Positions 1,673 through 49,672 of a stretch of DNA of 64,000 nucleotides are shown in pieces; position 1 is the stretch's first letter; each line of letters opens with the position of its first letter. The notes under the pieces were generated by a model. That model saw nothing but the letters and a program-made list of their open reading frames with translations. It did not search any database and was not told the origin of the DNA. The DNA is from a virus, in IMG/VR virus record IMGVR_UViG_3300008267_000018, positions 20,613-84,612 of that record. The stretch is one strand, 5' to 3'. The position numbers and the translations under genes were made by a program.

Positions 1673-1811
1673 GAGCTTTTAATACCTCTTCGACATAGTC
1701 TTCTTGGTGCATCCTAAGTTCTGCGCCAAGTTTTACAAGACCCCAGTGGGTATCTTGATCTAGTTCAAGATCGTAACGGATTGTTGTTTTGGTGTGTAAG
1801 TTGTGCTTCAT
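1626..1811 (-). CDS. small hypothetical protein, 61 aa
   Basis: The sequence LELDQDTHWGLVKLGAELR followed by a second helix with EDYVEEVLKAHVEHEL resembles a ribbon-helix-helix type layout (short strand, two helices), but the match is weak. The start ATG at 1811 overlaps the stop of the 311-aa gene by 4 nt (ATGA), showing translational coupling. Could be a small regulator; otherwise unknown. Confidence 0.5.
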   Translation of the reverse strand: MKHNLHTKTTIRYDLELDQDTHWGLVKLGAELRMHQEDYVEEVLKAHVEHELGKQVASDCD

Positions 1812-2743
1812 TTCTTTTTGATTGCGGATTGCAGTTGTGACAATGCAGTACCAGGAAATGGTACATAGCCTGCCTCCATCATATTGAAAAACAAATCCCA
1901 GGCATGCCCTTGGTTGAATACCTCCGTTGGTTTGTACGTACGCCAGTGAGTCAATGGAGCCTGAGCACCAGACTTGGTATGCAGAAGTACAAACTTACCA
2001 TCACTGATGTGATCCTGAGGAGGTGCATACCACCATGCCACACACTTATCAGGTGTACCACTGGGCAATGCATTACGCACCTCAGTCCGCTTGCACAGCA
2101 GCTCACGGTATTTATGGAACCAAGTCAGGTGGATGCACCAGGGCTTGAATCCTTCGATCTCTTGTCGGAACAAATCCAAGTTGTTGAGCTGACGTTGAAA
2201 GGACCCGCATGAACAGAAAGGTTCAGGGACTTTGGACTCAGCTTGGTCCTCCACCAAGTCAGCGTCCATATCAATGGGCCGATTTGGAGCCCGCAACCCG
2301 TCCGGCGCAACCAAATGCCCCAGGTCCGTTTGGTCATTCTGGAGAAGAGCGATGACTTTATTGGGGTCAGATAAATGAATGAACTTGTCTGCCCAGTGTT
2401 GTTGGAGCTTGGCATTGGAAGTCAGGTGTCCGAGTGCGTGTGAGTAGTTCCAGCCCTTAAACATAACGTAAGCATTGTTATGCCATACACTAGGGCCACG
2501 GTAATTAGGACCAAGGTAAGAAAAGAAGTCTTTGAGTCGGTGAGTATACTGCTGGAACGCTGTCTTGATCAACGTCCGTTCATAAGCCTGCTCACTACCA
2601 TCACAACGCACCACAACACAATTGTCATCTCGCAGATAAATGCCAGAGATTTCGGTGTCATCAAAGTCTGCATACGCACGACGAATGTTGGACCGTGAAT
2701 AGATGAGGGCTTGAGCTGAGTTGAGTTCGGTTTGGAGTTGCAT
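1808..2743 (-). CDS. SWIM-type zinc-finger-like hypothetical protein
   Basis: 311 aa. Around residues 180-215 it reads PFCSCGSFQRQLNN...FKPWCIHL. This is CxC followed ~23 residues later by CxH, the ligand pattern of SWIM zinc fingers, which mediate nucleic-acid or protein contacts. The rest is aromatic-rich and not recognised. The leader before ATG 2743 contains CTAACTCAACTCAG and no Shine-Dalgarno. It heads the overlapping gene chain 1165-2743. Confidence 0.55.
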   Translation of the reverse strand: MQLQTELNSAQALIYSRSNIRRAYADFDDTEISGIYLRDDNCVVVRCDGSEQAYERTLIKTAFQQYTHRLKDFFSYLGPNYRGPSVWHNNAYVMFKGWNYSHALGHLTSNAKLQQHWADKFIHLSDPNKVIALLQNDQTDLGHLVAPDGLRAPNRPIDMDADLVEDQAESKVPEPFCSCGSFQRQLNNLDLFRQEIEGFKPWCIHLTWFHKYRELLCKRTEVRNALPSGTPDKCVAWWYAPPQDHISDGKFVLLHTKSGAQAPLTHWRTYKPTEVFNQGHAWDLFFNMMEAGYVPFPGTALSQLQSAIKKK

Positions 2744-3040: not shown

Positions 3041-3292
3041 ATGGAAGAAATCAAATACGTACCATTAACTAAATTTCAAATTGAACCAACGCTTGATGAT
3101 AAGTTTTGGCTAGAAAAAATCAAACGATCAATTGAAGATTGCAATTCAGTAAGTACCTTAAAAGAAATGGCGACCTTGCTTGCGCAGATCGCCACTCAAC
3201 GTCAAGGTGTGATTAGGGGATTAGTACAAGACATGTTTATTTTTAACGGCATTGCAATCAATCAAGATGACATTGCCAACCCTCCGACTTAG
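3041..3292 (+). CDS. isolated plus-strand hypothetical protein, 83 aa
   Basis: This is the only plus-strand gene in the first 23 kb. The protein (start MEEIKYVPLTKFQIEPTLDD) is mostly helical, with a regular LKEMATLLAQIATQRQGVIR segment, and has no recognised domain. It has its own candidate -10 box at 3002. Its last 35 nt are tail-to-tail with the HNH gene on the other strand, so both C-termini are encoded by the same DNA. Expression opposite to the early operon suggests separate timing. Confidence 0.6.
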   Translation: MEEIKYVPLTKFQIEPTLDDKFWLEKIKRSIEDCNSVSTLKEMATLLAQIATQRQGVIRGLVQDMFIFNGIAINQDDIANPPT

Positions 3293-3707
3293 CTTCTGCA
3301 ATTAAACGAAAAACGGTTCTTTTGTTGTAACCAACATGTTTTGCAATCACATGGACAGCAGTACCTTCTTGTTTCATTTTTAAAATTGTTTTTCTTGTTT
3401 CAAAAGTACATTTTTTTGGATGGGTTCCATGGCGCTTTTTATTGTTCATATCATTTAAATTATCTAATTGTGTTCCAAGTTTTAAATGAAGTGGATTGCA
3501 ACACAATCGTACATCGCATACATGCATAACAACTTTCCCTTTAGGAATAGGACCATAAAAATGCGAGTAAGTCCACCTATGGGCTAGTCTACTCACAGGG
3601 TTTGTAGGCATTTGGCCATAGCCTGCACCCATAGTAGAGCCAAGAAAAGGCCAGCATGAAGCTGGCCCGCCCTCAGAATCAATGAGACTGAGAAAATAAT
3701 AACTCAC
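3258..3707 (-). CDS. HNH homing endonuclease with C-terminal HTH
   Basis: 149 aa. Residues ~40-80 (LAHRWTYSHFYGPIPKGKVV, MHVCDVRLCCNPLHL) match the HNH_3 fold: an H before the core, a second H in the VMHVCD segment and N in CCNPLHL. The last ~40 residues (MKQEGTAVHVIAKHVGYNKR) form a helix-turn-helix for DNA binding. GTG start at 3707 overlaps the stop of the DUF5895-like gene. Unlike three other HNH genes here, no duplicated 3' end of the neighbour is visible downstream. Instead it meets the plus-strand gene 3041-3292. Confidence 0.8.
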   Translation of the reverse strand: MSYYFLSLIDSEGGPASCWPFLGSTMGAGYGQMPTNPVSRLAHRWTYSHFYGPIPKGKVVMHVCDVRLCCNPLHLKLGTQLDNLNDMNNKKRHGTHPKKCTFETRKTILKMKQEGTAVHVIAKHVGYNKRTVFRLIAEAKSEGWQCHLD

Positions 3708-4720
3708 AAGCTATTGTCCTCCCCAGTTAAAAGGTCACGAGAAGGTAATGCCTTGACTTCTACTTCATTCAATGTACGAGACACTGGAAGAACCTGCACG
3801 CCTTCTTTCATTCCATATGCTCCATTAAGTTTTTGAGCATCTTGTTTAGCATGGATGTTAATGTAATCACTGAACAGTTCCTGGAACTTCCAAGTAGATT
3901 CACGATCTTCATCAGGAATCGACATGCGATTCAAAGATTCGACCGCCTCTTCTTGGTTGCTGTAACCAGGAATGTCAAAAGATTCAATTGCACAGATCTC
4001 AACGTTGTTGGCTCCGCGCATCTCATTGGCAAGTACTGGAGCAAATACGGTAGTTGCATAGAACTTTTCATTAAAGCTCAGCGGTACTTCAGCATCCAGT
4101 GCTTTGCTCAAGCACTTGGACATTTCCTTTTCGTACAGCTTGACCTTGTCGCTAACGTCAGTACCATTCAATCCCTTTAGTGTAAGCACCATCGGAATCT
4201 TGTGGGCACGCTTGTTGTCCTGCGTAAGGATATACACCAGGTACTTTGTACGTACACTGTACTTACGCTTGTACATCTCACCTTTGCTGTTGGCAAGATC
4301 AGATGCAATCTTGTCAGCCTCAAACAATTCCTTGGTACTGGGATCATCAAACGTACCAATCGTCTGCCTCATCCCCGTGGTTTCCTCAACCATGAGGGGA
4401 GAACGTAGAAGGATTTGAATACGAGGCTCAACAAAATTGAGTCCTTCTTCCACTGAAGTGTTGGGAGCCATGCCGAAAGTTTGCTTGTAGTTCCAGATAA
4501 CTGAACCTTTAGCAAACTGATCTTCAGTGGCACTCCATCCGCAAGTGTCCAGATCTGAGTTCCGCACGAACCAACCTCTAGTCTTGGACTTGTTGAGGGG
4601 CTGGATAGTAACGAGGTTCTGGTACCCCGAAACAAATTCTTTGGATTGAAAAAGTTTGAAAGAATCGAGGCCACGTGTAGCAAGCGCAGAAGTTTTCTTC
4701 GTAGTCATGGAAGCAGTCAT
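3704..4720 (-). CDS. DUF5895-like protein next to SSB/DNA polymerase
   Basis: 338 aa (an alternative ATG at 4708 gives 334). It contains TRGWFVRNSDLDTCGW near residues 47-62 and a long mixed alpha/beta body. The overall look resembles DUF5895 proteins of cyanobacteria and their phages. I name that family with limited confidence. It lies in the replication cluster with SSB and Pol A, so a DNA-metabolism role is plausible but not shown. A recurrent hairpin sits 35 nt upstream of the start. Confidence 0.5.
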   Translation of the reverse strand: MTASMTTKKTSALATRGLDSFKLFQSKEFVSGYQNLVTIQPLNKSKTRGWFVRNSDLDTCGWSATEDQFAKGSVIWNYKQTFGMAPNTSVEEGLNFVEPRIQILLRSPLMVEETTGMRQTIGTFDDPSTKELFEADKIASDLANSKGEMYKRKYSVRTKYLVYILTQDNKRAHKIPMVLTLKGLNGTDVSDKVKLYEKEMSKCLSKALDAEVPLSFNEKFYATTVFAPVLANEMRGANNVEICAIESFDIPGYSNQEEAVESLNRMSIPDEDRESTWKFQELFSDYINIHAKQDAQKLNGAYGMKEGVQVLPVSRTLNEVEVKALPSRDLLTGEDNSL

Positions 4721-10773: not shown

Positions 10774-10950
10774 CTAACCATTGGCTTGCTCCAGTTCGTT
10801 GGCAAGTTTCCACAAGTAATCTTGAGATGCAGAATCATAAAGCTGATCCGCAGCAGCACGAAGGACGGCAGCGATGTCGTTATTCCTGTACCAAGTCTTG
10901 CGGCCAGCAGCATCCAACACCGCTTGAGCGGCAGGGGAAAGGTCAGTCAT
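10774..10950 (-). CDS. 'LSPAA' small repeat-family protein, copy 1
   Basis: 58 aa, beginning MTDLSPAAQAVLDAAG and ending KLANELEQANG, with AAVLRAAADQL in the middle. Three neighbours share this three-part pattern. Its ATG overlaps the previous stop by exactly 8 nt (ATGACTGA). Role unknown. Confidence 0.7.
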   Translation of the reverse strand: MTDLSPAAQAVLDAAGRKTWYRNNDIAAVLRAAADQLYDSASQDYLWKLANELEQANG

Positions 10951-11143
10951 TGATGCCCTCCAGTTCGTCGGCGATGGTGAGGATGTTTTTCTCAGTAATA
11001 CCAAAATACTTAAGTTCTTGTACCACAGCCCGCAGAACGGCGGCAGTACAGCGATAATCTTTGGCCATAGGGCCATCTAACCAGCCACAGTTATTCATGT
11101 AAGCATCCAGCACTGCATCAGCGGCTGGGGAAAGTTCAGTCAT
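10943..11143 (-). CDS. 'LSPAA' small repeat-family protein, copy 2
   Basis: 66 aa, MTELSPAADAVLDAYMNN...AAVLRAVVQELKYFG...TIADELEGIND. Paralogue of the neighbours, with the central part longer than copy 1. Both junctions are 8-nt overlaps, so the set is read by translational coupling. Confidence 0.7.
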   Translation of the reverse strand: MTELSPAADAVLDAYMNNCGWLDGPMAKDYRCTAAVLRAVVQELKYFGITEKNILTIADELEGIND

Positions 11144-11327
11144 TAATGTTCTCCAGTTCGTTGGCAATATCTAAAATGTCTTGCCGAATATCATCTGCTC
11201 CTTTAATACGTGATGCTAATGCATAGAGAGTAGCAATAACAATTTGACGGGAATACGAATCAGGTTCTACTTCCCATTCAGCAACAGCGTCAAAGATTGC
11301 TTGACTAGCAGGGGAAAGGTTAGTCAT
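11136..11327 (-). CDS. 'LSPAA' small repeat-family protein, copy 3
   Basis: 63 aa from ATG 11327 (MTNLSPASQAIFDAVAEWEV), ending DIANELENIND. The most diverged of the four copies in its first half, yet it keeps the same ends and junctions. Function not known. Confidence 0.7.
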   Translation of the reverse strand: MTNLSPASQAIFDAVAEWEVEPDSYSRQIVIATLYALASRIKGADDIRQDILDIANELENIND

Positions 11328-11664
11328 CAAGTTGCTCCAGTGCTAAACGAATGGTGTCCACCTCAGCTTCACTCCAAAAATCTTTTGGATATTTCAGCGT
11401 TTCTAGTGCCTGTTCCTTCAAGCTCGGCGGCTTGGGGCGCATTGCTTCTTTTAAGGATTCACCCATTGGAGTAATCCTTAGATGCGGTTCATTCAAGGTA
11501 TTGTAATCTAGCCACTCTGCATCTTTTGCAAGTTGTTGGTCTGCGCCCCACTGAGCAGCACGTGCAGCAATATGAAGCTCGTAAAGCCAATCACGTTCGT
11601 CATAACACTTTTCAGAAGCCCACTGCTCTATGAGCTCGCGAGGTGGGGTAATAGAGTTAGTCAT
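11320..11664 (-). CDS. 'ITPPPELV' family protein, copy 1
   Basis: 114 aa from ATG 11664: MTNSITPPRELIEQW at the start, AARAAQWGADQQL in the middle and PPSLKEQALETL...LALEQLDD at the end. Copies at 12106-12453 and 16727-17071 share all three blocks. Small proteins of this kind are known from marine Synechococcus and their phages; no function is established. Joined to both neighbours by 8-nt overlaps. Confidence 0.7.
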   Translation of the reverse strand: MTNSITPPRELIEQWASEKCYDERDWLYELHIAARAAQWGADQQLAKDAEWLDYNTLNEPHLRITPMGESLKEAMRPKPPSLKEQALETLKYPKDFWSEAEVDTIRLALEQLDD

Positions 11665-11707
11665 CGTTCGGCCTCCTGAACTCACCTACATACGATTCGT
11701 CAGTCAT
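11657..11707 (-). CDS. 16-codon linker mini-gene
   Basis: ATG 11707 to TAA 11657: MTDESYVGEFRRPNDD. It exactly fills the gap between two modular genes, and each end makes the same 8-nt overlap (ATGACTGA upstream, ATGACTAA downstream) as all other junctions in the array. It contains AGGAGG, a perfect Shine-Dalgarno for the next gene. This regularity is the evidence that it is a real module and not chance. Confidence 0.55.
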   Translation of the reverse strand: MTDESYVGEFRRPNDD

Positions 11708-12113
11708 TGGGCATAGCCTCCAGCTCGGCGGCGATGACGAGAAGTTGGGCGCGGATCTCGTCCATAGCGTCCCAACGCACAAAAGGTGTGCCGATTAGTG
11801 GAGGAGCAGTCTCTGGCACCACTTGATCCGCAGCAGCTTGCAGGGCGGCGGCAGCAATCCAGCGGGATTCGTTTAGGCAGTCATCTGCCCCCCAGGAGCT
11901 GGCACCGTTGGCGGCATCCAGCACAGCTTCAGCGGCGGGGGAGAGGTCAGTCATGGGCAGGCGATCGCTCACCGGGATGGGCTGCGGCCCCTCCGGCTCG
12001 GGCTGGTCCAGGGCGGCGCGGGCGCGTTCCAGCAAGGCGTGATGGACTTCATCCACCGCATAGGTATTGAACGCGGCGTGAAGCTCAGCGCACAGCTCTC
12101 GGTAGTCAGTCAT
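11700..12113 (-). CDS. fusion of a 'MTDYRELCAEL' module with an 'LSPAA' module
   Basis: 137 aa. Residues 1-53 (MTDYRELCAELHAAFNTYAV, then a Pro/Glu linker) are unlike the neighbours. From residue 54 the protein restarts as MTDLSPAAEAVLDAANGASS and ends LLVIAAELEAMPND, a full LSPAA unit. The internal Met suggests that two once-separate genes fused. The DNA is visibly GC-rich and holds the cyanobacterial HIP1 palindrome GCGATCGC at 11961-11968. Confidence 0.7.
   Translation of the reverse strand: MTDYRELCAELHAAFNTYAVDEVHHALLERARAALDQPEPEGPQPIPVSDRLPMTDLSPAAEAVLDAANGASSWGADDCLNESRWIAAAALQAAADQVVPETAPPLIGTPFVRWDAMDEIRAQLLVIAAELEAMPND
11961..11968. other. HIP1 palindrome GCGATCGC
   Basis: HIP1 is highly over-represented in many cyanobacterial genomes. 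I noticed no other exact copy in this window; this one falls in the GC-rich modular island, consistent with acquisition from a host chromosome. Confidence 0.8.
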
Positions 12114-12453
12114 GGAGTTGCTCTAGTGCGCGGCGGATGGTCTGGGCGGCGTTGTTGTTGATGTGCCCACCTTCCCAAGCGTTCTCAAGCATTTCAAGCG
12201 CCTGCTCCTTCAAGCTCGGCGGATTGGGGCGGCGGGCGGCGCGGATGTAGCGAGCAAAGTCATAAGCATCCTCACCAGCGTCAATTTCAACCAGCCTTAG
12301 GCACGCCTCCAGCTCCTGGTCGGCGCCCCATTGGGCGGCGTGGTGGGCAATAAACAACTCGTATGCCCAGTTCTCGTCGTTGCTTTGAACAGGGCTAGCA
12401 GCTGACCACTGCTGCACCAGCTCCGGCGGTGGGGTGATGGGGTGGTTAGTCAT
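12106..12453 (-). CDS. 'ITPPPELV' family protein, copy 2
   Basis: 115 aa, MTNHPITPPPELVQQW at the start, HHAAQWGADQELEACL, RAARRPNPPSLKEQALEML and ALEQLHD at the end. Paralogue of 11320-11664 and 16727-17071. Codons are GC-rich compared with the surrounding genes. It is the first gene of the overlapping module array, 2 nt after the stop of the gene at 12456. Confidence 0.7.
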   Translation of the reverse strand: MTNHPITPPPELVQQWSAASPVQSNDENWAYELFIAHHAAQWGADQELEACLRLVEIDAGEDAYDFARYIRAARRPNPPSLKEQALEMLENAWEGGHINNNAAQTIRRALEQLHD

Positions 12454-16536: not shown

Positions 16537-16734
16537 TCAGAACAACTTGATGTTGCGTTTACTCAAGCCTGTGCCAGGCAATGAGATAGATCCACGTACA
16601 CCAGATTCTCTGGCGTTAAGTGTTACCTGGAATGGTCCAAGTTGAATCGACTTAGTAAACGATTTGATTCCATGTTCAGTGACATTGAATCCAGCAATTG
16701 TCTTGTCAAAGTTAATGGGTGACTTGTCAGTCAT
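16537..16734 (-). CDS. DUF4236-like protein
   Basis: 65 aa from ATG 16734. The C-terminal half (SIQLGPFQVTLNARESGVRG, then SISLPGTGLS) matches the beta-strand pattern of DUF4236: a LG-x-x-V-N segment, then SGVxGSxSxPGTG. Function of that family is unknown. Joined to the ITPPPELV copy 3 gene by the same 8-nt overlap as the 11-12 kb array. Confidence 0.6.
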   Translation of the reverse strand: MTDKSPINFDKTIAGFNVTEHGIKSFTKSIQLGPFQVTLNARESGVRGSISLPGTGLSKRNIKLF

Positions 16735-17071
16735 CGAGTTGCTCCAGTGCTTTACGAATGATGTCGTAAGTGACATCATCAATCTTGTCTCTGTTGTATA
16801 CATCGCCAAGTTCAATTAACGCTTGCTCCTTTAAGCTTGGCGGCCTGGGGCGGCGGGCGGCGCGGAGTGATGGGATGAGAGCGCAGTGAGTTACTAGGTT
16901 TTGGCAGCGCAGCCACTCACAACACGCCTCTAGCTCCTGATCGGCGCCCCAGCGGGCGGCTTGGGTGGCGATGAAATCTACAAGTCCATCATGTTTGACC
17001 TTGGCATCAATCCAAGAATCGTGCCACTGCTCCACCAGTTCCGGCGGTGGGGTAATTGGATGGTCAGTCAT
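16727..17071 (-). CDS. 'ITPPPELV' family protein, copy 3
   Basis: 114 aa: MTDHPITPPPELVEQW, AARWGADQELEACCEWL, RAARRPRPPSLKEQALIEL and KALEQLDD. Paralogue of copies 1 and 2. The central part is GC-rich relative to its neighbours. 8-nt overlaps at both ends show that it was inserted as the same kind of module about 4.3 kb from the main array. Confidence 0.7.
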   Translation of the reverse strand: MTDHPITPPPELVEQWHDSWIDAKVKHDGLVDFIATQAARWGADQELEACCEWLRCQNLVTHCALIPSLRAARRPRPPSLKEQALIELGDVYNRDKIDDVTYDIIRKALEQLDD

Positions 17072-18228: not shown

Positions 18229-18259
18229 GGGTAGGCCAGTAGTTATCTGGCAATACCCT
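18229..18259. repeat. 31-bp perfect direct repeat, copy A
   Basis: Identical to 18500-18530 (starts GGGTAGGCCAGTAGTTATCT). The two copies flank the 68-aa gene at 18268-18474. Confidence 0.85.
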
Positions 18260-18267
18260 TGATGAGT

Positions 18268-18474: not shown

Positions 18475-18499
18475 TGTGTTAATTACGTTGAGCTTAAAT

Positions 18500-18530
18500 G
18501 GGTAGGCCAGTAGTTATCTGGCAATACCCT
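18500..18530. repeat. 31-bp perfect direct repeat, copy B
   Basis: Partner of 18229-18259. A degenerate third relative with the same GGGGTCTGGGGG prefix and CTTATCT end lies near 20396-20430. Confidence 0.85.
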
Positions 18531-18540
18531 GGTACTTACT

Positions 18541-18588
18541 GTTCGCTATTCGCAAATAGCGAATGTCAGCATAACGTTAGTGTTATGT
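18541..18588. repeat. two adjacent inverted repeats
   Basis: TTCGCTATT/AATAGCGAA (9 bp) and CATAAC/GTTATG (6 bp) lie just downstream of the HNH/AP2 gene and upstream of the 68-aa gene. Likely an mRNA 3' stem or terminator-like structure without T run. Confidence 0.5.
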
Positions 18589-18596
18589 GCCGTAGG

Positions 18597-18629
18597 TTAG
18601 ATCAAGCCGAGAATCCTAAGCCAGGAGTT
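18597..18629 (-). pseudogene. orphan duplicate 3' end of the 19161-19520 gene
   Basis: Reads NSWLRILGLI-stop in frame, against DSWLSILGLI-stop at the true end of the 119-aa gene: 8 of 10 residues identical, but only 22 of 33 bases, with mostly synonymous changes. It lies directly beyond the HNH/AP2 gene and overlaps its last codons. Confidence 0.75.
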
Positions 18630-19158
18630 TACAACTGATTTCAGGCAATACATTTAATACTGAAAAATCTTTGTAAACATCTTTAACAAAGCAATTGTAT
18701 TCATAGGCTAAACGAGCAGGGCATATGTGATGAGCAAGATGTTTAGACTTACCGTTTAGAGTAACGGTAGACCTAAATAAACCTCTTGTCTTGTGCCATG
18801 AAACCCCCTTGTAACCCGTAGTGTTACTAGATCTAAGTTTCATGTTTGCTGCGTTTTGAGATCTACTTGATAAACGTAGATTTTCAATACAGTTATTAGA
18901 ACTATCTTGATCTATATGATCAACTTCATATTGACCAGGATCTGTACCTGTGGCCAGATAATAAACAATCCTGGCGCACTTATAGTTCTTTCCATTGATT
19001 TGAATTATAGATCGCTTGGATTTAAAATCATAGGCACCTGCCTGTTCACCAGGTTTGCATCGATTATTAAAGCTGTATTTAACAGCAAGACCAGTAGGAA
19101 AACTGGGGCAAAGTTCATAACGCTTTGCCACCAAATCGTAGTCAGGCATGTTGTGCAT
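18616..19158 (-). CDS. HNH homing endonuclease with AP2 domain
   Basis: 180 aa from ATG 19158 (ATG 19149 also possible; a start at 19188 would overlap the neighbour). HNH_3 core around residues 55-105: CARIVYYLATGTDPGQYEVD, then HIDQDSSNNCIENLRLSS, with the usual H-N-N pattern. AP2 domain ~115-160: TGYKGVSWHKTRGLFRSTVT. Homing endonucleases of this type cut an uninvaded allele and are copied in by repair. It sits at the 3' end of 19161-19520 and is followed by a duplicate of that gene's end (18597-18629). Confidence 0.85.
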   Translation of the reverse strand: MHNMPDYDLVAKRYELCPSFPTGLAVKYSFNNRCKPGEQAGAYDFKSKRSIIQINGKNYKCARIVYYLATGTDPGQYEVDHIDQDSSNNCIENLRLSSRSQNAANMKLRSSNTTGYKGVSWHKTRGLFRSTVTLNGKSKHLAHHICPARLAYEYNCFVKDVYKDFSVLNVLPEISCKLLA

Positions 19159-19160
19159 AA

Positions 19161-19520
19161 TTAAATCAATCCAAGAATTGATAACCAAGAATCTACGTGG
19201 TCTGGTTCGACTTCGTCACTGCAGGGAGTGAGGCAGGTGCTGTCGAACGTGTACTCCTCGATCTCTTCGTTGGTTGGGATGTCGTACCATCCTTCGAGAT
19301 CTTCCTTGTCCTGGGCTGAGTAGTTACCACCGGCTGGGATCCAGTAGCACCTGAGGATTCCACGCTTGGTTCTGTAGACATTACCAGTGCAGGCGATGGC
19401 GCCTTTGGGTGCGTCCTGAAAGTCTGTCTCTGCTTGGAACTGCTGGTTACCTTCGTCTTCGTCGAAGGCTTCGTAGCCGAGTGCGTCTGCGATGAGCAGT
19501 TGTTCAGGTTGAAGAGACAT
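19161..19520 (-). CDS. hypothetical acidic protein, target of HNH insertion
   Basis: 119 aa, MSLQPEQLLIADALGYEAFD at the start and HVDSWLSILGLI at the end. It contains GNVYRTKRGILRCYWIPAGG in the middle and is strongly acidic. Its last 11 codons are duplicated beyond the HNH gene, so its current 3' end probably came in with the endonuclease. The upstream 328 nt also carry the out-of-frame tail of the membrane protein 19193-19672. Confidence 0.6.
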   Translation of the reverse strand: MSLQPEQLLIADALGYEAFDEDEGNQQFQAETDFQDAPKGAIACTGNVYRTKRGILRCYWIPAGGNYSAQDKEDLEGWYDIPTNEEIEEYTFDSTCLTPCSDEVEPDHVDSWLSILGLI

Positions 19521-19818: not shown

Positions 19819-19852
19819 GGTCTGAGTTGAGATGGAACGGTGAGCAGTTTAA

Positions 19853-19868
19853 GGACATGCTCAGGTCC
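19853..19868 (-). promoter_or_regulatory. recurrent 5'-UTR hairpin, copy 7
   Basis: GGAC/GTCC stem, 8-nt loop CTGAGCAT, then TTAAACTGCTC; 35 nt before ATG 19818. Here the AUG in the hairpin is out of frame with the gene and opens a short reading frame across its start. Confidence 0.6.
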
Positions 19869-19886
19869 ATACGTAGTACTGATGTA

Positions 19887-20261
19887 CTACCTCATGAGTC
19901 TGTTCTTGAAGTTGGGGATATATACATTGTCTTGGCACGGTTCCTTATAGGACCTGTACGTGACAATTGCATAGATGGCCGCTGGTGTCATGTCGTATGC
20001 CCTGGCAATAAACCCAATTGATTCATTGTATTTAGCACGGGCACGAATGTCATTGACCTGGGCATCACTAAGGAAGCCACGGTAGCGTCCACGTTTGATT
20101 GGGTCTTCCTTGAGGGGAGGACGTTGCCTCACTCTACGGATGACCTTAGTCATTGATATGGGACTGCAGTTGACAATGCTAGCGATCAGATCGTAGCGAT
20201 AACCTTTGCAACGCAGATCCCAAATCTGGTCTTCTTTCAGGATAGAAATGCGTGATTTCAT
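19887..20261 (-). CDS. double helix-turn-helix DNA-binding protein
   Basis: 124 aa. Two similar HTH units: residues ~8-45 (LKEDQIWDLRCKGYRYDLIA) and ~64-102 (LSDAQVNDIRARAKYNESIG, then DMTPAAIYAIVTYRSYK). These resemble the HTH that follows HNH domains in phage homing nucleases, but no nuclease part exists. Likely a transcription regulator or a decayed homing gene. The leader contains CCAACAACTCAACTCAAATC. Confidence 0.6.
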   Translation of the reverse strand: MKSRISILKEDQIWDLRCKGYRYDLIASIVNCSPISMTKVIRRVRQRPPLKEDPIKRGRYRGFLSDAQVNDIRARAKYNESIGFIARAYDMTPAAIYAIVTYRSYKEPCQDNVYIPNFKNRLMR

Positions 20262-20295
20262 TGGATTTGAGTTGAGTTGTTGGTGAGTAGTTTAA

Positions 20296-20311
20296 GGACA
20301 TGCTCAGGTCC
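20296..20311 (-). promoter_or_regulatory. recurrent 5'-UTR hairpin, copy 8
   Basis: GGAC/GTCC stem and loop identical to copy 7; 35 nt before the double-HTH start at 20261. Confidence 0.6.
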
Positions 20312-41759: not shown

Positions 41760-42173
41760 ATGATTCTTCATCAGCATAAAAAAACAGGCGCTCGCGTCAA
41801 GATCGTAAGCGAATGGGATAATGGCGATTGGTTCATGGTCGAAGATCAGGACGGTCGCCTTTACACTGCTTACAAAACTGAACTTATCCCTGATGAGCAA
41901 GCTACCAAAAAGGTGACTGCTCTTCAAGTAAAAGATAAGGCGGCACAGGAAGAGCCACGTACTTTTCCTCCGGACACTCGCTTGAACATCAACTCAGCCA
42001 CCGCCCAAATGATCGCAGATCATATCAAGGGCATTGGACTGAAGACTGCCCGAGAGATCAAAGATCTACAGATGTCCTTATCGGGTGAGAGATTTAACAG
42101 CCTTGAGCAGTTGAAACAAATCAAAAGAGTTGACTGGAGTGCGGTCTTGGCAGCCGATTTAATAAGGGTCTGA
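41760..42173 (+). CDS. helix-hairpin-helix protein, target of HNH insertion
   Basis: 137 aa. Residues 1-45 form a small beta domain (ARVKIVSEWDNGDWFMVEDQ). Residues ~72-130 match a ComEA-like HhH unit: LNINSATAQMIADHIKGIGL, then TAREIKDLQ and FNSLEQLKQIKRVDW, which binds DNA backbone. Possibly a head-completion or connector protein. It ends AVLAADLIRV-stop; the same ten residues recur as AVLAADLVRV-stop at 42692-42724 beyond the HNH gene. Confidence 0.7.
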   Translation: MILHQHKKTGARVKIVSEWDNGDWFMVEDQDGRLYTAYKTELIPDEQATKKVTALQVKDKAAQEEPRTFPPDTRLNINSATAQMIADHIKGIGLKTAREIKDLQMSLSGERFNSLEQLKQIKRVDWSAVLAADLIRV

Positions 42174-42187
42174 TTTAAACGCATAAC

Positions 42188-42646
42188 TCAACCAAGAGGG
42201 GTAACACCCCTCTTTTTCATTATGGCGTTGAATTTTTCTTTATTTCTTGTTTTTATGTGATGGCATGTGCCACAGAGAACCTGGCATTTTTTTATTTCTT
42301 TTTCAAGTCTTTTTTTGCTAAACGTACCCCCTCGTCCAATGTTAAATTTTTTATCGTAAAGATGATCAAAATCTAGTCCCTCAGGGTGTTCGTTATACCC
42401 ACAGCATGCGCAACCTTCTGTTATTTTTAAATTGTTCATCCAGTTTCTGTTTTCAGAAGACAAACGTTGAGATCTTTTTTTGTCATAGGCTTTTTTCTTT
42501 TCTTGTTGGTCGGGACTCATCCATACCTCTAAAAAAGTTCCGTCTTGTTTAATTTTTTTAAAGTTGTAACCAATAAAAATAAAGCCGTCTTCCCTGCAGT
42601 CGCCGTGTTTAAAAAATGCCCCAGTTTTTGGATTAATTCTTTTCAT
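42188..42646 (-). CDS. HNH homing endonuclease, antisense to late genes
   Basis: 152 aa. Core at ~75-140: two CxxC pairs (GCACCGYNEHPEGLDFDHLY ... VLCGTCHHIKT) that hold a structural zinc around the HNH site (D-H in FDHLY, H-H in CHH). It is AT-rich compared with neighbours and lies on the opposite strand inside the late operon. Its last codons form one arm of a plus-strand terminator. Inserted behind 41760-42173, with a duplicate of that gene's 3' end on its far side. Confidence 0.85.
   Translation of the reverse strand: MKRINPKTGAFFKHGDCREDGFIFIGYNFKKIKQDGTFLEVWMSPDQQEKKKAYDKKRSQRLSSENRNWMNNLKITEGCACCGYNEHPEGLDFDHLYDKKFNIGRGGTFSKKRLEKEIKKCQVLCGTCHHIKTRNKEKFNAIMKKRGVTPLG
42195..42217 (+). 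terminator. intrinsic terminator behind the HhH gene
   Basis: AGAGGGGT/ACCCCTCT 8-bp stem, 3-nt loop, five T. It overlaps the 3' end of the antisense HNH gene and was probably brought with it. Confidence 0.8.
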
Positions 42647-42691
42647 TTTTAAGATAGCAAAATAAAACTATAACACCTGAAACGTTTTATT

Positions 42692-42724
42692 GCCGTACTT
42701 GCTGCCGACTTAGTCCGCGTTTAA
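42692..42724 (+). pseudogene. orphan duplicate 3' end of the HhH gene
   Basis: AVLAADLVRV-stop, against AVLAADLIRV-stop at 42141-42173: 9 of 10 residues identical but only 21 of 33 bases, most differences at third codon positions or in synonymous Leu/Arg codons. It is followed by the original terminator, so it looks like the end of the gene before HNH insertion. Confidence 0.8.
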
Positions 42725-42739
42725 CTTGTCTCCTACTGG

Positions 42740-42763
42740 CCCCTGGGAAACCAGGGGTTTTTT
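42740..42763 (+). terminator. intrinsic terminator
   Basis: CCCCTGG/CCAGGGG stem with GAAA loop and six T. Originally the terminator of the HhH gene. Confidence 0.85.
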
Positions 42764-43514: not shown

Positions 43515-43976
43515 GTGCAATTATCTGACTTTGACAAAAGTAGGGTCAGGTATCACCTGGGCTATTTCACGGTTTCTGTTCCGGCGGGCGATTACGCACG
43601 TCTGGAAGAAGCCCTGAATACCATCCCAGATTCGTACTTCTACGATAAAATTGCTATTCAAATTGGTCGTTGTGATACTGCCGAGAAAAAGACTGAGGTA
43701 GCCACTTCACCTTCTACTCGACTCGAAAGTATTGCTGGTGACGTTGATCGTACTATTCGGTCAAGTAATGCCAAGGAAGCATTAAAAGTTTGGGACGAGA
43801 TCTATCTCTACGAAACAAACCGTTTGGCTGGCATTCTTTACGTACCTAACTACAAGGATCCGTTCCAGGCTCGTTATCGTTACGAACGCTCTGGTGCTGA
43901 GTTTATCCAGGCATTACCTGGACCCGCCGATGTCTCGGTTGGCACTCGCATATATCTTCACGAGCTATGGCGATGA
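43515..43976 (+). CDS. hypothetical virion protein, target of HNH insertion
   Basis: 153 aa, TTG start. Alpha/beta: LGYFTVSVPAGDYARLEEAL, then a helix and a tyrosine-rich C-terminus (YKDPFQARYRYERSGAEFIQ). It ends VGTRIYLHELWR-stop; VGSRIYLHEVWR-stop recurs at 44554-44592 beyond the HNH gene. Possibly a head-tail connector by location; family not recognised. Confidence 0.6.
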   Translation: MQLSDFDKSRVRYHLGYFTVSVPAGDYARLEEALNTIPDSYFYDKIAIQIGRCDTAEKKTEVATSPSTRLESIAGDVDRTIRSSNAKEALKVWDEIYLYETNRLAGILYVPNYKDPFQARYRYERSGAEFIQALPGPADVSVGTRIYLHELWR

Positions 43977-44016
43977 TTTAATCCGTGTATGCTAGGATAT
44001 TGATACACGGATTAAA
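43977..44016 (+). promoter_or_regulatory. 14-bp perfect inverted repeat enclosing a -10 box
   Basis: Arms TTTAATCCGTGTAT (43977-43990) and its complement (44003-44016) surround GCTAGGATATTG, which contains TAGGAT (43993-43998). It begins right after a stop codon and ends four bases before the HNH ATG. Confidence 0.75.
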
Positions 44017-44019
44017 CAG

Positions 44020-44535
44020 ATGGTGGCCCCTTGTCCCTTGCCGGCGATTGAAGAGTTAAAAGAATATTATGAATATATACCAGAAACAGGTGAGTTGTTT
44101 TTAATTAAATCACGTTGCAAGGCTGATAAGCAAAAAATCGGTAAACCAATCGGTTCTCTTGGCGGTCCGGTAAGACGCAAAACGTGGACGATAAAACATA
44201 AAGGGAAAAGCTATTACATTAGTCGAGTTGCCTGGGTATTGATGACCGGTATAGATCCAGGTCTTTTGCTGGTTGAGCATAAAAACAGAAATGCCCAAGA
44301 CAATCGCTGGGAAAATTTAAGGTTGGCTAGTGAGGCGGAAAACAACTACAACAAAATTTTTGTTGGGTATAGCCAAAGGAAAGATAACGAGCTGTACCGT
44401 GTTCGTGTTACTTTGGAAGGTAAACGTATCACCGTAGGCAACTTTAAGACCGAGGAAGAAGCAAAGAAGGCTGCCCTAGATGCGCAAAGACTTTTCTATA
44501 AAGAATTTGCGTGTCTTGATTTAGAATCAAATTAA
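44020..44535 (+). CDS. HNH homing endonuclease with AP2-like C-terminus
   Basis: 171 aa. HNH_3 core ~50-110: YYISRVAWVLMTGIDPGLLL, then VEHKNRNAQDNRWENLRLAS, keeping H and two N. AP2-like DNA-binding part ~120-165: NELYRVRVTLEGKRITVGNF, then EEEAKKAALDAQRLF. Inserted behind 43515-43976 and followed by a duplicate of that gene's 3' end. Its start is controlled by a large inverted repeat. Confidence 0.85.
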   Translation: MVAPCPLPAIEELKEYYEYIPETGELFLIKSRCKADKQKIGKPIGSLGGPVRRKTWTIKHKGKSYYISRVAWVLMTGIDPGLLLVEHKNRNAQDNRWENLRLASEAENNYNKIFVGYSQRKDNELYRVRVTLEGKRITVGNFKTEEEAKKAALDAQRLFYKEFACLDLESN

Positions 44536-44553
44536 TAAATAAAGTAGCCCGCT

Positions 44554-44592
44554 GTCGGTTCACGCATCTATCTACATGAGGTTTGGAGGTAA
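44554..44592 (+). pseudogene. orphan duplicate 3' end of the 43515 gene
   Basis: VGSRIYLHEVWR-stop against VGTRIYLHELWR-stop at 43938-43976: 10 of 12 residues identical, 27 of 39 bases. Its last codons TGG AGG TAA contain the Shine-Dalgarno of the next gene (ATG 44595), which explains why this fragment is kept. Confidence 0.8.
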
Positions 44593-49303: not shown

Positions 49304-49672
49304 ATGTTTTGCAACGAGCACGAGCCCCTTGCTTTGCTAGTTGAATTAACACCAAAACTTGCTAAAAAACGTTTTCGAGATGAAATTTATAAATCCTGGA
49401 GCCACTGCTGTGGTTACTGTGGAGATCCGGCAACAAGCTTAGATCATATAGTACCCAGATTTAAATCAGGATCTTCTAATCGTCACAATCTCTTACCTGC
49501 TTGCAGGCGGTGCAATACTAACAAGGCCAGTGAAAAAATGCAAGAATGGTATTTAAAGCAGTCTTTTTTTGATGCCTTAAAACTTGAAAAAATTACAAAC
49601 TGGATGCAACAAGATACACTAGAATTACTACCCTGGAAGCCCAGGCTTGACGATAAAAATTTTGCTGCGTAA
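49304..49672 (+). CDS. HNH endonuclease (McrA-like core)
   Basis: 122 aa. Core CCGYCGDPATSLDHIVPR, then GSSNRHNLLPACRRCNTNKA: two CxxC pairs with D-H, N and N in the usual HNH order, so likely active. Unlike the 42, 44 and 18 kb HNH genes, no duplicate gene end is visible nearby. It may be a homing gene or a packaging-associated nuclease. Confidence 0.8.
   Translation: MFCNEHEPLALLVELTPKLAKKRFRDEIYKSWSHCCGYCGDPATSLDHIVPRFKSGSSNRHNLLPACRRCNTNKASEKMQEWYLKQSFFDALKLEKITNWMQQDTLELLPWKPRLDDKNFAA

What the first reader, a model, noticed from the sequence alone, without database searches (positions are those of the whole stretch)
18597..19520. Third HNH insertion with duplicated 3' end, in the early region (case 3)
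19161-19520 ends DSWLSILGLI-stop and the HNH/AP2 gene that follows is bordered by NSWLRILGLI-stop at 18597-18629 (8/10 residues, 22/33 bases). The HNH stop codon lies inside the orphan. Three cases, in two operons and with both HNH orientations, make chance very unlikely. They suggest a general insertion route: homing into conserved gene ends with 3'-end replacement.
Basis: partly seen in the sequence, partly recalled or inferred. Interest (0 to 1): 0.85.

Follow-up and report, generated by a model that had tools for sequence, protein, structure and literature searches.

The report
HNH gene carrying replacement gene end
In this freshwater-cyanophage-like virus an HNH endonuclease gene sits inside the last codons of another gene, supplies a differently spelled copy of those codons so that the gene still works, and leaves the original end stranded behind it: a natural look-alike of engineered 'home-and-rescue' gene drives, known from fungal mitochondria but not found described for phages in the literature searched.

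Summary
Confirmed, and stronger than reported. The gene at 19161-19520 (-) ends DSWLSILGLI; the HNH gene 18616-19158 follows; its stop lies inside an orphan NSWLRILGLI-stop (18597-18629; 8/10 residues, 22/33 bases). HNH-less relatives decide which copy is native: the orphan and its downstream flank match them (L092: 33/36 and 56/60), while the gene's present end does not (24/36), although the gene body is 90% identical. So the insert brought a recoded 3' end and displaced the native one. The same holds at two other window sites (42138-42724 with an antisense, unrelated HNH; 43932-44592), at a fourth site in related phages (L139), and at a head/packaging gene in an unrelated phage (L304/L307). 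At the 43.9-kb site 12 of 12 readable occupied loci carry the orphan; of about 90 unoccupied loci only one does, and it keeps an HNH remnant. The replacement end co-varies with the HNH, not with the gene body (partial r 0.65, p 0.003). Such duplicates are strongly enriched behind HNH genes over other ORFs (odds ratio 46), but most HNH genes lack them (3 of 54 clusters in an unbiased sample; 0 of 17 named phages). Cleavage and homing are inferred, not shown. Fungal mitochondria have the same arrangement.

The parts
19197..19520 (-). body of the host gene (unknown function; conserved, S-EIV1 homologue 63% identical)
   Evidence: 88-90% nt identical to HNH-less relatives L092/L097
19161..19196 (-). 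replacement (recoded) 3' end: V D S W L S I L G L I stop
   Evidence: 24/36 nt to native end of L092 while body is 281/312; same recoded end in HNH-bearing relatives L093-L095
18616..19158 (-). HNH (I-HmuI-like DH...N...N) plus degenerate AP2 endonuclease gene, 180 aa, phrog_99; its stop lies inside the orphan
   Evidence: PF13392 47 bits, AP2 weak; phrog_99 3e-44; alignment A1
18597..18629 (-). orphan: displaced native 3' end (NSWLRILGLI-stop)
   Evidence: 33/36 nt to native L092 end
18537..18596 (-). native sequence downstream of the displaced end
   Evidence: 56/60 nt to L092, 55/60 to L098
41760..42137 (+). case B host gene body (helix-hairpin-helix protein)
   Evidence: S-EIV1 homologue without insert
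42138..42173 (+). case B replacement 3' end
   Evidence: abrupt boundary after GTTGACTGG against L213/L028; 58-61% nt to native
42194..42214 (+). case B cassette's own terminator-like hairpin
42188..42646 (-). case B HNH endonuclease, unrelated family (phrog_3106), antisense to host gene
   Evidence: 7e-24
42692..42724 (+). case B orphan native 3' end, followed by the native terminator 42738-42759
   Evidence: 94-97% nt to native, downstream 60 bp 95-100%; terminator
43515..43931 (+). case A host gene body (phrog_29158, unknown function)
43932..43976 (+). case A replacement 3' end (VSVGTRIYLHELWR-stop)
   Evidence: 67-74% nt to native against 93-94% for the body
43977..44018 (+). case A linker with hairpin directly before the HNH ATG
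   Evidence: stem found in most hA-type occupied loci
44020..44535 (+). case A HNH/AP2 endonuclease (phrog_99)
44551..44592 (+). case A orphan native 3' end; contains the TGGAGG ribosome-binding site of the next gene
   Evidence: 85-87% nt to native ends; boundary at codon GCN in the occupied loci

Best explanation
A homing-endonuclease cassette of the form [recoded last 11-14 codons + stop (+ linker or terminator) + HNH gene] has been inserted inside the 3' coding end of a conserved phage gene. Proposed working: the HNH enzyme cuts the native gene a few codons before its stop in a co-infecting cassette-free phage; repair copies the cassette from the donor. The copied end restores the protein, while its different codons (and the split of the target by the insert) keep the new allele from being cut again and keep the two copies too unlike to recombine. 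The native end stays behind as an untranslated remnant, kept where it carries the next gene's ribosome-binding site (case A) or the operon terminator (case B) and otherwise lost in time. Shown: structure, native versus imported end, precise boundaries, co-inheritance of the imported end with the HNH, decayed copies. Inferred: cleavage specificity, copying by break repair, immunity of the recoded end.
For: (1) S-EIV1 and most relatives have single, uninterrupted ends at all three sites. (2) Orphan = native, joined end = foreign: C 92% v 67%; B 94-97% v 58-61% (94% v 70% with a 99% identical body in L025/L085); A 85-100% v 46-77% for most loci; D 92% v 63%; E 73-78% v 45-55% against L308. (3) Precise junctions: case B bodies identical up to GTTGATTGG, orphan native from there on; in case A orphans start at the same native codon. 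(4) Occupied loci: A 12/12 readable with orphan, B 5/5; unoccupied: 1 of about 90 (an HNH remnant) and 0 of about 109. (5) The joined end tracks the HNH (partial r 0.65, p 0.003); the orphan does not (r 0.11, p 0.24). (6) In an unrelated phage, L304 and L307 are identical until 170 nt before the stop, then about 70% through gene end plus HNH, then unrelated: gene end and HNH exchange as one block. (7) Peptide kept while synonymous codons are saturated (84/112 same-residue codons differ, 73.7 expected from random codon choice). (8) Two unrelated HNH families in both orientations. (9) Decay series: L131 (HNH mostly deleted, both ends kept), L012 (recoded end, no HNH). (10) Enrichment behind HNH genes: odds ratio 46, p 1.6e-18, loci not fully independent.
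Against: No cleavage or homing data. Codon changes are not clearly in excess of random, so selection for recoding as such is not shown. Two HNH genes at the case C site (L093, L106) and most phage HNH genes elsewhere have no orphan. One case A locus (L125) has a diverged orphan of unclear origin. The trait is a minority among HNH genes. E and F (L179/L180) rest on few relatives; F has no HNH-less relative and its two copies are DNA-similar.
Confidence: 0.87

Rival explanations
1. Target-site or tandem duplication: insertion duplicated the local end and the copies then drifted apart.
For: Two direct copies flank the insert, as with transposon target duplications; in L179/L180 the copies are still DNA-similar.
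Against: Both copies would start as native. Instead the copy under selection is the foreign one and the unused copy is native; the change is abrupt at one point in bodies that are 99% identical.
Confidence: 0.04
2. Ordinary free-standing homing gene with passive co-conversion: the foreign end is only flanking donor DNA copied along, from a diverged homologue, with one-sided illegitimate joining at the native remnant; no rescue or immunity role.
For: Explains a foreign end, saturated codons, the longer (about 57 codon) exchanged end in L304/L307 and the first origin of a cassette.
Against: The junction lies before the stop codon, so without the carried end the gene would lose 10-14 conserved residues; the same end stays tied to the HNH at one exact junction across many phages. 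It may be the origin of the cassette rather than an alternative to it.
Confidence: 0.25
3. Intron- or intein-like element: the orphan is the real last exon, joined by splicing.
For: HNH genes often sit in group I introns; gene end found on both sides.
Against: The host frame has its own stop before the HNH at every site; no intron family in the window by Rfam (only a tRNA); case B HNH is antisense with a terminator between.
Confidence: 0.02
4. Shared C-terminal motif or chance similarity of reading frames.
For: Short match (11 codons in case C).
Against: Top of all stop-codon pairs in the genome; 33/36 nt identity of the orphan, and 56/60 beyond it, to native gene ends.
Confidence: 0.01

Closest known systems
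Fungal mitochondrial mobile ORFs with C-terminal duplication (Allomyces macrogynus atp6; Glomus atp6, atp9, cox2, nad3; Beaudet et al. 2013, PMC3630166)
   Same: Endonuclease gene inserted near a gene's 3' end, bringing a foreign C-terminal end in frame, native end left downstream; native end 91-98% and inserted end 64-81% nt identical to the relative, with near-identical protein.
   Different: LAGLIDADG/GIY-YIG enzymes in mitochondria; here HNH enzymes of two families in dsDNA phages, very short ends (11-14 codons), several sites per genome, many occupied/empty pairs, one antisense insert with its own terminator.
Free-standing phage homing endonucleases (T4 seg/mob genes, F-CphI; PMC3984707, PMC6083498, PMC10448857)
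   Same: Optional HNH-type genes between conserved genes; inferred break-repair spread; phrog_99 and AP2-type HNH families.
   Different: Described cases sit between intact genes and rely on flanking sequence differences or an intron for self-protection; the passages read describe no insertion inside a coding end with a carried replacement end.
Engineered home-and-rescue gene drive (HomeR, PMC7968924)
   Same: Nuclease inserted in the 3' coding end of a needed gene together with a recoded end and an exogenous 3' region.
   Different: Synthetic Cas9 system in flies; analogy of logic, not homology.

Membership tests
Phage HNH homing endonucleases (HNH_3/AP2, phrog_99) | HNH_3 domain with DH...N...N motif, AP2 DNA-binding domain | tested here: met
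   HNH_3 47 bits (cut-off 24.8); DH, N, QN present; AP2 18 bits, below its cut-off 33.3 in hC and hA, above it in L139 and L176
Phage HNH homing endonucleases (HNH_3/AP2, phrog_99) | optional insertion: same site with and without the gene | tested here: met
Phage HNH homing endonucleases (HNH_3/AP2, phrog_99) | cleaves cassette-free allele and is copied into it | not testable with these tools
   needs biochemistry and mixed infection
Endonuclease cassette with replaced gene 3' end (fungal mitochondrial mORF type) | native end downstream matches relatives, in-frame end does not | tested here: met
Endonuclease cassette with replaced gene 3' end (fungal mitochondrial mORF type) | hybrid transcript ends in the inserted end | not testable with these tools
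   no RNA data; the in-frame stop shows coding only
Endonuclease cassette with replaced gene 3' end (fungal mitochondrial mORF type) | LAGLIDADG or GIY-YIG endonuclease in a mitochondrial genome | tested here: not met
   HNH families in phages; same working plan, not the same family
Group I intron with homing gene | catalytic intron RNA around the gene | tested here: not met
   Rfam scan finds only a tRNA in the window; host stop precedes the insert

The most novel reading that the evidence does not exclude
Phages hold a distinct class of homing elements, in at least two unrelated HNH families and several phage groups, that target coding ends of conserved genes and carry a recoded rescue end selected both for gene function and for resistance to the element's own nuclease. 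Hosts may retain recoded or chimeric ends (such as DVSVGT...EVWR alleles) as resistant scars, so gene ends diversify through a nuclease arms race.
Probability: 0.4. Interest if true: 0.85.

Novelty: new variant of a known kind. Interest (0 to 1): 0.77.

Why it matters
It shows how a homing gene can occupy the coding part of a needed gene without an intron or intein: it replaces the end it breaks. That plan was known from fungal mitochondria and was reinvented for synthetic gene drives; here it recurs in phages, at several sites per genome and in two unrelated nuclease families, with many empty and occupied natural alleles, junctions at base resolution and decaying copies. It predicts each nuclease's target to within a few bases, so homing, self-immunity and resistance become directly testable, and it explains abrupt divergence of gene ends in otherwise near-identical phages.

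Tried and rejected
L153 scored as a duplicate but is a tandem array of HNH paralogues, rejected. The non-HNH duplicates are tandem paralogues (ALEQLND family, L100 and window 10.9-12.1 kb) or plain DNA repeats. 17 named phages with phrog_99-like HNH genes: no duplicates. HNH at 3258-3707: a few relatives carry an HNH there, no orphan. Case C relatives L093 and L106: HNH without orphan. Genome-collection scans for the HNH proteins of L180 and L139 found nothing. Excess recoding beyond random codon choice: z about 2 on non-independent loci, not claimed. Solved-structure search: no useful relative. Paper searches found the mitochondrial precedent but no phage report in the open-access library; subscription papers, Paquin and Lang 1994 among them, could not be read.

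Full report
WHAT IS THERE. The window is bases 20613-84612 of an 84,612-base virus contig. Its nearest named relative is the freshwater cyanophage S-EIV1 (KJ410740; terminase 83% identical). On the minus strand a 119-codon gene (19520-19161) of unknown function ends HVDSWLSILGLI-TAA. Two bases on, an HNH gene starts (ATG 19158) and stops at 18616, inside a stretch that in another frame reads NSWLRILGLI-TAA and ends at 18597. The 8/10 residues and 22/33 bases are right. Over all same-strand stop-codon pairs 90-2500 bases apart in the whole contig, the three HNH cases are at the top together with one family of tandem paralogous small genes.

WHICH COPY IS NATIVE. S-EIV1 has all three host genes with no insert. 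For the gene in question, HNH-less relatives end ...GACTCCTGGCTTAGGATTCTCGGCTTGATCTAACCTACG..., which is the orphan together with its downstream flank. Against L092 the gene body is 281/312, the joined end 24/36, the orphan 33/36 and the next 60 bases 56/60. So the end now attached to the gene is foreign and the orphan is the displaced native end. Relatives L093-L095, which carry a 39% identical HNH at the same site, have the same foreign codons GTAGATTCTTGGTTATCAATTCTTG.

THE OTHER SITES. Case B (host 41760-42173, HNH antisense at 42188-42646, orphan ending 42724): in L025 against L085 the body is 99% identical up to GTTGATTGG, then nearly every codon changes, while the orphan continues the native sequence and its downstream 60 bases exactly. 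The cassette brings its own terminator-like hairpin (42194-42214); the native one stands behind the orphan (42738-42759). Case A (host 43515-43976, HNH 44020-44535, orphan ending 44592): 13 distinct occupied loci; in all 12 whose contig reaches far enough an orphan follows; the orphans start at the same native codon (GCN before GTN GGN) and nearly all keep the GGAGG ribosome-binding site of the next gene. Among about 90 unoccupied case A loci only L131 has an orphan, and it keeps a fragment of the HNH; among about 109 case B loci none has. Case D: L139 carries an HNH in the gene homologous to window 1808-2743; none of the other 67 distinct relatives shows an orphan; orphan-native 47/51, joined-native 32/51 against L347. 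Case E: in an unrelated phage (L304, L307) the host is a head/packaging-like gene (PHROG match E 9e-4); the orphan resembles the HNH-less relative L308 (37/51 and 40/51) more than the joined end does (28/51 and 23/51). L304 and L307 are identical until about 170 bases before the stop, then about 70% through the gene end and the HNH gene, then unrelated: gene end and nuclease are exchanged as one block. Case F (L179/L180) has the duplicate but no HNH-less relative.

CO-INHERITANCE AND RECODING. Among the case A occupied loci the joined end follows HNH similarity when body similarity is held constant (partial r 0.65, permutation p 0.003); the orphan does not (0.11, p 0.24). Where joined end and orphan encode the same residue, 84 of 112 degenerate codons differ; random choice by the phage's codon usage gives 73.7. 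Synonymous sites are thus saturated while the peptide is kept: purifying selection on the protein. A specific drive to recode is not proven.

CONTROL AND GENERALITY. In all loci held, duplicated gene ends lie across 19 of 198 HNH ORF-orientations and 7 of 3050 others, most of these in one paralog array (odds ratio 46, p 1.6e-18, loci not fully independent). This set includes loci fetched because of the three cases. In the part not chosen for the trait, 3 of 54 HNH clusters show it. Non-HNH pairs are mostly high-identity repeats or tandem paralogues; HNH pairs are mostly 51-69% identical in DNA. In 17 named phages with related HNH genes none shows it. The route is therefore real and recurrent but not the usual one.

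HOW IT WORKS (inferred). The nuclease cuts the native gene a few codons before the stop in a cassette-free phage. Repair from the donor inserts the cassette. The carried end restores the protein; its different codons, and the split of the target by the insert, should prevent self-cutting, and the low similarity of the two copies hinders loss by recombination. Case A and C nucleases are phrog_99 HNH enzymes, case B an unrelated phrog_3106 HNH, so the arrangement arose at least twice or was acquired repeatedly. A likely first origin is one-sided copying from a diverged phage in which the nuclease gene stood behind the homologous gene, with the broken native end joined behind it. L131 and L012 look like stages of decay, and 19 of 89 unoccupied case A ends have the imported-type start DVSVGT, mostly followed by a native finish, which could be scars of lost cassettes; this is unproven.

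WHAT IS KNOWN. The same arrangement is described in fungal mitochondria (PMC3630166, citing Allomyces atp6), and the same logic was engineered in HomeR drives (PMC7968924). Reviews and surveys of phage homing genes that could be searched (PMC3984707, PMC10448857, PMC6083498) describe intron, collaborative and intronless homing; the passages found do not describe this. The library holds only open-access papers, so a phage report elsewhere cannot be excluded.

Noticed in passing
window 43977-44018: Conserved hairpin between the replaced gene end and the HNH start codon, its 3' arm ending just before the ATG, found in most case A cassettes of the hA type; may control HNH translation.
   Followed up: partly
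L131 (host gene match), L012:5001-5459: Decay stages: L131 keeps the recoded end, a deleted HNH and the orphan; L012 keeps the recoded end with neither HNH nor orphan, the next gene starting inside it.
   Followed up: yes
case A unoccupied loci such as L026, L048, L057: 19 of 89 HNH-less alleles end in DVSVGT... (imported type), mostly followed by native ...HEVWR codons: possible recombination scars or resistant alleles.
   Followed up: partly
L304 and L307, last 170 nt of the host gene through the HNH: Two phages identical upstream differ at about 70% through gene end plus HNH and are unrelated beyond: a clear exchange block with the nuclease at its edge.
   Followed up: yes
window 10774-12453 and 16727-17071; L100 7291-8795: Tandem family of small paralogous genes ending ALEQLxD (PPELVEQW... 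proteins), strongly repeated.
   Followed up: no
window about 19849-19872 and 20287-20310: Direct repeat GTTTAAGGACATGCTCAGGTCCAT on both sides of the small gene 19887-20261.
   Followed up: no
window about 18230-18260 and 18499-18530: Repeated hairpin GGGTAGGCCAGTAGTTATCTGGCAATACCC before two small early genes; related sequence also follows the host gene in HNH-less relatives.
   Followed up: no
window 3258-3707: HNH plus helix-turn-helix gene overlapping the stop of gene 3704-4720; a few relatives carry an HNH there too; no orphan end, so an ordinary insertion behind a gene.
   Followed up: yes
window 49304-49672: HNH gene kept at the same place in S-EIV1 (62% identical), so a long-resident gene, unlike the optional ones.
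   Followed up: partly
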